IMG/VR virus record: IMGVR_UViG_3300034279_002194
Coordinates: 1-31,987 of that record
From: a virus
DNA: 31,987 nucleotides
Direction: 5' to 3' (one strand)
This document shows positions 27,211 to 28,520 of this stretch, in pieces. The notes under the pieces were generated by a model. The model ran no database searches. It was not told the origin of the DNA and worked only from the letters and a program-made list of their open reading frames with translations. Each line of letters opens with the position of its first letter. Positions within the stretch are counted from its first letter, which is position 1. The translations under genes and the position numbers were made by a program.

Positions 27211-27218
27211 TATTTATT
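27211..27218 (-). promoter_or_regulatory. Late promoter motif AATAAATA in the 3' end of thyX
   Basis: The minus strand reads AATAAATA, fitting NATAAATA, overlapping the thyX stop codon and 27 bp before the TTG start of the 82-aa gene. It could separate late expression of that gene (and phoH) from the early thyX transcript. Chance matches are common in AT-rich DNA. Confidence 0.35.
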
Positions 27219-27924
27219 CAATAGTAATAGAAGGAGGATCAACGCATTCAGAGCATCCTTCACGAGTCCAACCAAGTGCTTCAGATACTGCAGGAAACTG
27301 ACAAGTGAAGATACAACGTACAAGTTCAGCAATCTCCATATGTTCCTTTTGTGTGCCGTGAGCAGACCGTAGATCAATGTAATGGATCCATGACCTTACA
27401 GAACCGGTCATATAGAGGCGTGTAGGCGTTGCTAGAGGCAGTACAAACCTTGCACACTCCTTTGCTACTCCTTTCTCTAGAAGGCGATTGTAGAGGCGCA
27501 TAGAGTGCTCAAAATGAACGCGAATATCTTCTGTTAGGGTTAGTTTCAAATAATCAGGAATATCGTCAATTGAGTTCTGACGATTCTTATTATCCTGACG
27601 ACGAAGTTCTGGAAGAGGAATGGTTTTTCCAAGAAGAGTACTATCAGCATATCGTTGTGAAAATTCCTGATATGTAAAACTCCTATGACGAAGAATTTGT
27701 GCTGCTAGACCACGAGTAGTATTAATTTCTACAGTCATTGAAGCTTGTTCAAAGATACTCCAATGCTGATGCTGAATACAATACTTAAGTAGTCCAGCAA
27801 ACTTATCATTCTCCTGGTTTGCTGGATTAGAAACACGAGCACAGTATGCCATATGTTTCTCTGCACCTGGTGTAACAGATACAAGTTTTACTTCTGGTTT
27901 CATAAACTCAAAGTCATCAAACAT
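27214..27924 (-). CDS. thyX: Flavin-dependent thymidylate synthase ThyX
   Basis: 236 aa from the ATG at 27924. GAGGAGG sits nine bases before it, inside the preceding gene, which decides this start over two upstream in-frame codons. The ThyX signature RHRSFTYQEFSQRY (79-92) is present, with Thr84 where the textbook motif has Ser. Other family features are MAYCARVSNP, KYCIQHQHWSIFEQASMTVE and CARFVLPLATPTRLYMTGSV followed by RSWIHYIDLR. ThyX methylates dUMP with methylene-THF, FAD and NADPH, supplying dTTP for phage DNA. It overlaps the upstream 56-aa gene by eight bases and is served by the strong promoter at 28111-28139. Confidence 0.95.
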   Translation of the reverse strand: MFDDFEFMKPEVKLVSVTPGAEKHMAYCARVSNPANQENDKFAGLLKYCIQHQHWSIFEQASMTVEINTTRGLAAQILRHRSFTYQEFSQRYADSTLLGKTIPLPELRRQDNKNRQNSIDDIPDYLKLTLTEDIRVHFEHSMRLYNRLLEKGVAKECARFVLPLATPTRLYMTGSVRSWIHYIDLRSAHGTQKEHMEIAELVRCIFTCQFPAVSEALGWTREGCSECVDPPSITIE

Positions 27925-28087
27925 TATATTCATCCTCCTCGTCATAAAATACTTCGTCGTAATCAGCTAGAAAATTCTTAACTTCCTCATATTGAGGATC
28001 TTTAACTTCAAAATCAAGTTCTTTCTTAAGACATTCAACTAAAGTCTCAAGGTTTCTTACGATGAGCTTAATCTTTTCTCTATCCAT
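27917..28087 (-). CDS. Small acidic conserved phage protein upstream of thyX
   Basis: 56 aa from the ATG at 28087 (MDREKIKLIVRNLETLVECL). The ribosome site GAGGT lies eight bases upstream; a longer form from a TTG would bypass it. It is helical at first (KLIVRNLETLVECLKKEL) and very acidic at the end (ADYDEVFYDEEDEYNV). No known domain was recognised. It is the first gene after the terminator/promoter composite, with a predicted leader of only about 17 bases, and its end contains the thyX ribosome site, so the two are co-translated. Small acidic early proteins of this sort may bind host proteins; that is speculation. Confidence 0.7.
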   Translation of the reverse strand: MDREKIKLIVRNLETLVECLKKELDFEVKDPQYEEVKNFLADYDEVFYDEEDEYNV

Positions 28088-28110
28088 TTTTATCAACCTC
28101 GACAAAGGTA

Positions 28111-28139
28111 ATTATACATAAAAAAAGAGGGGGAGTCAA
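28111..28139 (-). promoter_or_regulatory. Strong sigma70-type promoter (TTGACT-17-TATAAT) driving the thyX operon
   Basis: On the minus strand TTGACT (28139-28134) and TATAAT (28116-28111) are separated by exactly 17 bp. Match to the bacterial consensus is five of six and six of six. The -35 lies in the loop and first base of the upstream terminator's descending arm; the -10 follows its T-run. Predicted start near 28104, about 17 bases before the 56-aa gene. Confidence 0.75.
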
Positions 28140-28150
28140 GTCCCCCTCTT
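28120..28150 (-). terminator. Intrinsic terminator after the micro-ORF pair
   Basis: On the minus strand a perfect 10-bp stem (AAGAGGGGGA pairing with TCCCCCTCTT, at 28150-28141 and 28134-28125) with a six-base loop (CTTGAC) is followed by a seven-T run counting the stem end. It starts four bases after the stop of the 33-aa ORF. On the opposite strand no T-run follows, so it is directional. Confidence 0.9.
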
Positions 28151-28153
28151 ATG

Positions 28154-28255
28154 TTATTTTGCTGCCAATAGAGTGGCAAGAGATGCTTTTTTGCGCCTCT
28201 CTTCTTTTTGCTTTTGCTCTTTTATGAGTTGCAATACATTAAGTTTCTTAATCAC
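28154..28255 (-). CDS. 33-aa basic micro-protein, coupled to DUF4278-like gene
   Basis: A short ORF starting with GTG at 28255, which overlaps the preceding stop as GTGA. It reads MIKKLNVLQLIKEQKQKEER, then RKKASLATLLAAK. GGAGG lies seven bases before the GTG, an unusually good ribosome site, and the terminator begins just after its stop. The peptide is strongly basic and likely one amphipathic helix. No family was recognised. Its existence is supported by ribosome site, coupling and terminator rather than by length. Confidence 0.6.
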   Translation of the reverse strand: MIKKLNVLQLIKEQKQKEERRKKASLATLLAAK

Positions 28256-28389
28256 TTATGCCCCTCCTTTACAAACTTAACACCACGATAGGTTTCATTG
28301 TATTGTTGAGGTTGTTGCATCATTTGTTGCTGATACTGAATACGCTTTTCAGTATCATACTCGATACCGCGATAAACTACTTTAGACAT
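28252..28389 (-). CDS. 45-aa DUF4278-like protein
   Basis: ORF from the ATG at 28389, with AAGGAG eight bases upstream. It reads MSKVVYRGIEYDTEKRIQYQ, then QQMMQQPQQYNETYRGVKFV and KEGHK. The two YRG motifs (VVYRGIEY and ETYRGVKF) separated by a Gln-rich stretch match the layout I know for DUF4278, a short cyanobacterial family with paired YRG motifs. The function is unknown. The gene is preceded by a strong promoter and a structured leader, and followed by the coupled 33-aa ORF and a terminator, so the two form a self-contained early unit, possibly taken from a cyanobacterial host. Too short to be certain of homology by eye. Confidence 0.7.
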   Translation of the reverse strand: MSKVVYRGIEYDTEKRIQYQQQMMQQPQQYNETYRGVKFVKEGHK

Positions 28390-28443
28390 TAGGTTTTCTC
28401 CTTAGTTTTTTAAGTTAAAGAGCGTTCCTTCAGTCGGCGTTTG

Positions 28444-28469
28444 CGTTCGCTATTTACGAATAGCGAATG
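28444..28469 (-). other. Stem-loop in leader of DUF4278-like gene
   Basis: A perfect nine-base stem (TTCGCTATT / AATAGCGAA, 28446-28454 with 28459-28467) and a four-base loop, extendable by two pairs including one G-U. It is followed in the transcript by a GCCGAC...GGAACG copy that repeats one located before the stem. No T-run follows, so it is not an intrinsic terminator. Confidence 0.6.
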
Positions 28470-28489
28470 AACGATCCGTTCCGCGTCGG

Positions 28490-28520
28490 CTTACTTCCGT
28501 CCCATAGGGATGAACGTAAG
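28490..28520 (-). other. 5'-terminal stem-loop of early leader RNA
   Basis: Two 14-base arms around a three-base loop pair in 12 of 14 positions (one G-U), beginning CTTACGTTC and ending GGAAGTAAG on the minus strand. The predicted transcription start (near 28517) falls at its 5' base. A hairpin at the very 5' end often protects phage mRNA from decay; that is inference. Confidence 0.55.

What the first reader, a model, noticed from the sequence alone, without database searches (positions are those of the whole stretch)
28111..28150. Promoter threaded through a terminator: -35 in the hairpin loop, -10 after the T-run
Seen: a perfect 10-bp terminator stem with loop CTTGAC and seven T's; TTGACT spans the loop, and TATAAT follows at exactly 17 bp. 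Forming the terminator hairpin and opening the promoter use the same 40 bp. This ends one early unit and starts the thyX unit with a leader of only about 17 bases. It could be compaction, or a switch in which polymerase pausing at the terminator blocks or hands over to the next promoter.
Basis: seen in the sequence. Interest (0 to 1): 0.7.

Follow-up and report, generated by a model that had tools for sequence, protein, structure and literature searches.

The report
Cyanophage promoter built into a terminator
In this virus of cyanobacteria one 40-base stretch of DNA appears to serve both as the stop signal of one gene group and as the start signal of the next; the same layout recurs in many related viruses, and it looks like a new layout of a composite element already named in the T4 virus group.

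Summary
By chance such a strong overlap appears in 1 of 100 dinucleotide shuffles of the window. A fused element lies within 500 nt upstream of thyX in 67 of 71 viral loci with enough DNA, spacing 17 in 64 and 16 in 3, while the stem sequence changes with compensation. A scan that asks for TTGAC, six T and TATAAT but no stem, with thyX-type sites removed, leaves 71 sites spaced 17, of which 28 have a hairpin on the -35, against a mean of 2.6 when 5' sides are swapped. In 13 cyanophage isolates and one viral record 29 of 365 terminators are fused; hli03 carries one in 8 of 14. Host-family genomes: 3 pattern matches in 151, none spaced 16-18. KVP40 and nt-1 have the -35 in the stem; RB49 has the promoter after the T-run. 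I read it as a compact composite of the PeSL kind with the -35 in the loop. Hand-over of terminated polymerase is possible but untested. New variant of a known kind.

The parts
28419..28516 (-). glutamine-riboswitch-like leader at the head of the upstream unit (28419-28475, weaker second match 28477-28516)
   Evidence: Rfam RF01739 33.6 bits against a gathering score of 35, and 23.1 bits; nothing at gathering score; glnA riboswitch annotated in S-CREM1 where that record matches the window
28252..28389 (-). 45-aa reading frame of the upstream unit, weakly like DUF4278
   Evidence: translation; Pfam DUF4278 E 0.0012, below cut-off
28154..28255 (-). 33-aa reading frame (GTG start), last of the upstream unit; stops 3 nt before the stem
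   Evidence: the same or a similar C-terminus recurs in relatives
28125..28150 (-). terminator hairpin: 10 pairs, loop CTTGAC 28140-28135
   Evidence: compensatory changes in relatives
28120..28126 (-). T-run of the terminator (7 T, two of them paired); upstream RNA 3' end expected about 28118-28120 (inference)
28134..28139 (-). -35 TTGACT, five bases in the loop and one in the 3' arm
   Evidence: TTGACT, TTGACA, TTGACG or TTTACA in 66 of 67 relatives
28111..28116 (-). -10 TATAAT, 17 bp after the -35
   Evidence: TATAAT in 59 of 67 relatives
28103..28104 (-). predicted start of the thyX-unit RNA (leader 16-17 nt)
   Evidence: inference from the -10 position; not measured
27917..28087 (-). 56-aa reading frame (MDREKIKLIVRNLE...), first gene of the thyX unit
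   Evidence: homologue in SynMITS9220M01 before thymidylate synthase
27214..27945 (-). thyX
   Evidence: Pfam PF02511 Thy1, E 1.8e-46

Best explanation
A composite boundary element that stops one phage transcription unit and starts the next within 40 bp. The hairpin acts only in the nascent RNA of the upstream unit, which ends about 28118-28120. The promoter acts on the duplex DNA: host sigma-70 polymerase reads TTGACT (in the loop DNA) and TATAAT (after the T-run) and starts about 28103. The two signals can share DNA because a 17-bp spacer is just long enough to hold the 3' arm and the T-run, so a promoter placed as close as possible behind a terminator has its -35 over the loop, the stretch of the hairpin free of the pairing rule. 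Selection keeps both: stems mutate in matched pairs, hexamers and spacing stay. The element insulates the unit (56-aa gene, thyX) from whatever gene lies upstream, and upstream genes differ between relatives right up to its border. Shown: anatomy, conservation, covariation, recurrence, difference of upstream neighbours. Inferred: that both signals work in infected cells, that they work independently of each other, insulation, and the time class.
For: Anatomy. A fused element within 500 nt upstream of thyX in 67 of 71 loci (9 of 80 were too short to judge); controls on the same loci: 2 of 71 on the opposite strand, 0 of 71 reversed, 0 of 62 after thyX. By a loose motif test the next frame resembles the window's 56-aa frame in 60 of these 67 (spacing 17 in 57, 16 in 3). 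Stem pairs change together, e.g. positions -7/+10: G-C 6, A-T 11. Viral scan without a stem demand: 80 of 121 sites spaced 17 against 9 of 115 for the reversed pentamer; hairpins 45 of 121 against 3 of 115; without the 9 thyX-type sites, 28 of 71 sites at spacing 17 have a hairpin against mean 2.6, maximum 7 of 200 swaps. Whole genomes: among 72 terminators with TTG in the loop a TATAAT-like hexamer lies at spacing 17 in 26 cases and at each other spacing in at most 4; none at 17 among 21 such terminators of five other phages. -10 start after the stem: 31 at 5-14 nt, 0 at 15-24, about 2.7 per 5-nt bin beyond. Upstream 100 nt unrelated in 78% of 5995 pairs, downstream in 5%.
Against: No RNA data. 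At the corresponding place S-PM2 has a terminator without this promoter and S-SM2 and Bellamy have promoter before hairpin, so the fusion is not obligatory for the unit. L063 keeps the promoter (17, 11/12) without a pairing 5' arm; L062, L064 and L071 show no element near thyX (L071 has a pattern match about 1.07 kb upstream). About 5 of the 31 close promoters are expected from background. The thyX loci were chosen by the downstream gene, so the high downstream identity is partly ascertainment. Recognition by cyanobacterial polymerase is assumed from the E. coli-type consensus.
Confidence: 0.75

Rival explanations
1. Relay: polymerase that has released the upstream RNA stays on the DNA about 15 bp from the next start site, keeps or regains sigma, and reinitiates at the overlapping promoter, so upstream transcription feeds the thyX unit.
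For: In vitro E. coli polymerase mostly stays on DNA after intrinsic termination and can reinitiate at nearby promoters (passages of PMC6978380 and PMC7957599); a gene-coupling role for a sense promoter near a terminator is raised as a possibility (passage of PMC6978322). The fused layout gives a very short distance, and no promoter of the definition lies 15-24 nt after a stem in the cyanophage set.
Against: Nothing here and none of the passages read shows it in phage-infected cells; tight packing alone explains the layout; RB49 uses about 33-40 nt from stem to -10.
Confidence: 0.15
2. Interference switch: polymerase elongating through or pausing at the terminator covers the promoter, so heavy transcription of the upstream, riboswitch-led unit lowers thyX-unit initiation.
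For: Elongation complex at 28120 and promoter complex must occupy the same DNA (geometry); the upstream unit begins with a glutamine-riboswitch-like leader.
Against: Upstream neighbours differ among relatives (46 distinct 10-aa C-termini, many of them variants of fewer families), which speaks against dependence on one particular upstream regulator; termination is expected to clear the site.
Confidence: 0.1
3. Recombination cassette: the element is kept because copies serve as short homology for exchange of gene modules, as proposed for PeSLs.
For: The border of similarity lies at the element: 380 pairs with downstream at least 0.8 alike and upstream unrelated, 0 the other way (1 at a threshold of 0.7).
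Against: Copies inside one cyanophage genome are not alike outside the hexamers (0.23-0.61) and the window holds one copy (next best 22 of 40 on other DNA), so exchange between copies within one genome lacks homology; only exchange between corresponding copies is plausible. The thyX loci were ascertained by the downstream gene.
Confidence: 0.2
4. Only a terminator; the promoter match is accidental.
For: Promoter-like sites are not in excess in the window as a whole: 91 found, 83.2 expected.
Against: Hexamers and spacing stay while the stem sequence changes; L063 keeps the promoter without the stem.
Confidence: 0.03

Closest known systems
PeSLs (promoter-early stem-loops; Arbiol 2010, Comeau 2014) of T4-like phages such as RB49/phi1 and KVP40/nt-1
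   Same: Composite of an early sigma-70-like promoter and a stem-loop terminator at borders where gene content changes. My survey finds joined terminator-promoter sites in KVP40, nt-1 and RB49.
   Different: Here the -35 lies in the loop with spacing 17; in KVP40/nt-1 TTGAC is in the 5' arm with GTCA in the 3' arm, spacing mostly 18 and -10 3-6 nt after the stem; in RB49 the promoter follows the T-run. Copies inside a cyanophage genome are not alike. Neither PeSL paper could be opened: I saw titles in reference lists and one citing passage; which phages they treat and the rest of their content is recalled.
Transcription reinitiation by recycling RNA polymerase (Kang 2020, PMC6978380; Harden 2020, PMC6978322)
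   Same: Terminator next to a promoter is the layout in which it would act.
   Different: In vitro E. coli work with separate terminators and promoters, plus RNA-end data for antisense starts; no phage composite in the passages read.
Moron-type gene cassettes with own promoter and terminator (recalled)
   Same: Small unit with its own promoter behind a terminator.
   Different: Signals here overlap, and the unit holds a conserved gene (thyX) rather than a lone insertion; not tested as a moron.

Membership tests
PeSL (promoter-early stem-loop) | strong sigma-70-like promoter | tested here: met
   TTGACT-17-TATAAT, 11 of 12; by sequence only
PeSL (promoter-early stem-loop) | stem-loop terminator joined to the promoter in one small cassette | tested here: met
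   28150-28111; terminator activity itself not testable
PeSL (promoter-early stem-loop) | promoter active early in infection | not testable with these tools
   needs RNA from infected cells
PeSL (promoter-early stem-loop) | several alike copies per genome that can recombine (recalled) | tested here: not met
   one copy in the 32-kb window, which may be a fragment; in the nine cyanophage genomes with two or more fused elements, copies are 0.23-0.61 alike outside the hexamers. In KVP40, by the same measure, three of the four are 0.66-0.75 alike
PeSL (promoter-early stem-loop) | sits where gene content is exchanged | tested here: met
   upstream neighbour unrelated in 78% of pairs, downstream in 5%; ascertainment by the downstream gene applies
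Intrinsic terminator | G-C-rich stem followed by T-run | tested here: met
   fold -19.2 kcal/mol
Relay by recycling polymerase | downstream initiation depends on upstream termination | not testable with these tools
   needs transcription assays

The most novel reading that the evidence does not exclude
The fused elements are relay devices: T4-like cyanophages chain their short units so that polymerase released at one terminator starts at the promoter threaded through that same terminator, carrying a limited pool of host polymerase from unit to unit.
Probability: 0.12. Interest if true: 0.8.

Novelty: new variant of a known kind. Interest (0 to 1): 0.5.

Why it matters
It shows a recurrent way of packing stop and start signals into 40 bp in cyanophages, with three different registers among T4-related phages. 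It also supplies natural terminator-promoter distances (by inference about 15 bp from RNA end to start here, about 40-45 in RB49) with which the open question whether terminated polymerase reinitiates at the next promoter in living cells could be tested directly.

Tried and rejected
Chance: rejected. Host-derived element: the pattern TTGAC-T6-TATAAT gives 3 matches in 151 genomes drawn from the family of a Cyanobium genome (1.0-4.0 Mb each), spacings 13, 14 and 14, fewer than the 8 matches of the reversed pattern, against 8 matches, all spaced 16 or 17, in the 13 cyanophage isolates searched, of which 6 have at least one; this pattern asks for no hairpin. Bidirectional terminator: the plus-strand reading has no T-run next to the stem (sequence). 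Rfam small-RNA matches on the plus strand at the hairpin (sraA, E 0.0093, and others) are far below gathering score and are taken as chance. A DNA cruciform exposing the -35 was considered and set aside without a test. Genomes without fused elements under the definition: Syn9, P-HM2, T4, lambda, HTVC008M, P-SSP7; KVP40 has 4 of 72. Reading the upstream frames at first used wrong coordinates (redone). Literature: ten searches ran; among the titles and abstract starts listed, and the passages that I opened of nine papers (PMC3037559, PMC6978380, PMC6978322, PMC7957599, PMC1524935, PMC4503421, PMC7029224, PMC5931544, PMC4177764), I saw none that describes a -35 in a terminator loop in cyanophages. 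The two PeSL papers are not held, so a prior description cannot be excluded.

Full report
What is there. On the minus strand a 10-pair stem (28150-28125, loop CTTGAC) is followed by a T-run; TTGACT covers five loop bases and the first base of the 3' arm, and TATAAT follows at 17 bp. The upstream unit holds a glutamine-riboswitch-like leader (28419-28516, just below Rfam's gathering score) and two very small reading frames; the last stops three bases before the stem. Downstream come a 56-aa frame (ATG 28087) and thyX. The nearest named records are cyanophages.

Is it more than chance. With one strict combined definition the window has one site; 1 of 100 dinucleotide shuffles has any. A loose version gives 1.64 per shuffle and one in the window, so the strength, not the mere overlap, is unusual in the window taken alone. 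The decisive evidence is comparative.

Upstream of thyX in relatives. 80 thyX loci were kept by the protein search (a capped list). Nine have under 200 nt upstream. Of the other 71, 67 carry a fused element within 500 nt on the sense strand: spacing 17 in 64 and 16 in 3; -35 TTGACT 29, TTGACA 25, TTGACG 6, TTTACA 6, TTGATC 1; -10 TATAAT 59, TAAAAT 6, TAGAAT 2; 56 distinct elements. By a loose motif test the next frame resembles the window's 56-aa frame in 60 of the 67 (57 spaced 17, 3 spaced 16); three more (L042, L055, L077) read alike by eye; L074, L075 and L080 begin another gene, and L079 is unclear. Controls on the same loci: opposite strand 2 of 71, reversed 0 of 71, after thyX 0 of 62. 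The four without it are instructive: L062 has neither terminator nor promoter at the junction; L063 keeps TTGACT-17-TATAAT and a T-run, but its upstream side does not pair; L064 (351 nt held) and L071 show none there, L071 having a pattern match about 1.07 kb upstream.

Covariation. Grouped by register, stem pairs switch between G-C, A-T and, at some positions, C-G or T-A together. Swapping 5' sides between elements lowers mean pairs from 9.09 to 7.16, maximum of 200 swaps 7.70. The stem is kept as a stem, the hexamers as hexamers.

Beyond this junction. A strict pattern hit 98 viral stretches, many of them near-duplicates; 98 of 99 matches are spaced 17, one 16, with 16-20 allowed. That pattern fixes part of the stem, and nearly all its hits precede the same downstream gene. 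Sites with under 20 nt upstream and repeats of the same letters were dropped. Nine of the 121 are thyX-type; without them 71 of 112 are spaced 17, 36 of 112 have a hairpin, and at spacing 17 28 of 71 do, against a mean of 2.6 and maximum of 7 in 200 swaps of the 5' sides (with them 37 of 80 against 4.1 and 10). Sites not spaced 17 are hairpin-positive in 8 of 41. In 6 of 45 the 5' arm is mostly pyrimidine, which speaks for several origins.

Whole genomes. In 13 cyanophage isolates and the 175-kb viral record G002, 29 of 365 terminators are fused, 0 to 6 per genome; in five other phages 4 of 129, all in KVP40 (first set). The -10 starts 5-14 nt after the stem in 31 cases and 15-24 nt in none; beyond that about 2.7 per 5-nt bin, so about 5 of the 31 would be background. 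Among 72 terminators with TTG in the loop the TATAAT-like hexamer lies at spacing 17 in 26 cases. The 293 terminators with other loops show no peak at 17 but one at 14-15 counted from the loop start (25 hexamers), which is a -10-like hexamer right behind the T-run; the five other phages show no peak at 17 (0 of 21 TTG loops). Counting hexamers 6-13 nt after the stem, there are 83 in the 14 genomes (365 terminators) and 22 in seven other phages or parts (233 terminators); of the 83, 30 have a -35 of at least 4/6, 19 a TGn, 9 both and 43 neither. The 43 are against a simple promoter reading of every such site. The hli03 gene follows a fused element in 8 of 14 genomes (two named by annotation; the others by their translated N-termini), with different stems.

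Against a simple picture. Upstream of thyX in the 14 genomes (with sequences) SynMITS9220M01 and G002 have a strong element (at least 10/12); P-SSM2 (9), S-CAM1 (8) and Syn1 (8) have a hairpin and the 17-bp geometry with weaker hexamers; S-SKS1 has a terminator followed by TGC-TATAAT without a -35 of 4/6; S-PM2 has a terminator only; S-SM2 and Bellamy have promoter and hairpin in the opposite order; Syn9's best site (8) is not among the fused elements; DSL-LC02, S-CREM1, S-WAM1 and P-HM2 have none by these criteria. So the fusion is common near the window's kin and optional further out.

Difference of upstream genes. Of 155 junction records with at least 160 nt on both sides, 110 are distinct. 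The 100 nt before the element are unrelated in 78% of 5995 pairs and the 100 nt after it in 5%; 380 pairs are alike (0.8) only downstream, none only upstream. The thyX loci were selected by the downstream gene, so the asymmetry is partly built in. The upstream stop codon mostly lies within a few bases of the stem.

Hosts. In 151 genomes drawn from the family of a Cyanobium genome the loose pattern occurs three times, never with spacing 16-18.

Comparison with what is known. T4-like phages have described composites called PeSLs; I found the name and titles in reference lists and one passage stating that a region of S-PM2 with many unknown genes lacks the PeSL density seen in other T4-like phages, so that this mechanism is unlikely there (PMC4503421, passages). 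The two primary papers are not held. A comparison of 26 T4-like genomes predicted promoters and terminators by separate programs (PMC3037559, passages). To compare directly I searched RB49, KVP40 and 220 of 248 kb of nt-1: KVP40 and nt-1 have TTGAC in the 5' arm (AAAGGGTTGAC-4 nt-GTCAgCCC, then T-run and mostly TATTAT), RB49 has the promoter behind the T-run with the -10 33-40 nt after the stem in seven printed sites, and P-SSM2 holds two sites of the KVP40 type. The cyanophage register, -35 in the loop with spacing 17, is thus a third layout. By function I file it as PeSL-like; by strict membership one feature (alike copies in one genome, recalled) was tested and not met.

Mechanism. Terminator function is a property of RNA and promoter function a property of duplex DNA, so both can use the same base pairs. 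I hold independent stop and start with insulation as most likely. Relay by retained polymerase is attractive, because retention and reinitiation are shown in vitro for E. coli (PMC6978380, PMC6978322, PMC7957599, passages), but nothing here tests it.

Noticed in passing
28419-28516 (minus strand): Glutamine-riboswitch-like leader, possibly two aptamers in tandem (33.6 and 23.1 bits, both below the gathering score of 35), before the small reading frames of the upstream unit; S-CREM1 has an annotated glnA riboswitch in a matching place.
   Followed up: partly
S-SM2 187180-187420, Bellamy 202270-202345: Upstream of thyX promoter and hairpin stand in the opposite order: the hairpin with its T-run follows the -10 directly and ends at the ATG, so it would lie at the extreme 5' end of the mRNA.
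   Followed up: no
13 cyanophage isolates and G002: A TATAAT-like hexamer 6-13 nt behind the stem, sometimes as ATGC-TATAAT (extended -10), is common even where the loop has no -35; 43 of 83 have neither -35 nor TGn.
   Followed up: partly
L352, L397, L405, L406, L404, L388, L437: A group of phage promoters has a palindrome like AACTGGCAAAATCCAGTT running into the -35 TTGAC; looks like an operator or a hairpin upstream of the promoter.
   Followed up: no
P-SSM2 48630 and 235177: Two KVP40-type composites with TTGAC in the 5' arm of the stem and TATAAT right behind a short T-run in a Prochlorococcus phage.
   Followed up: no
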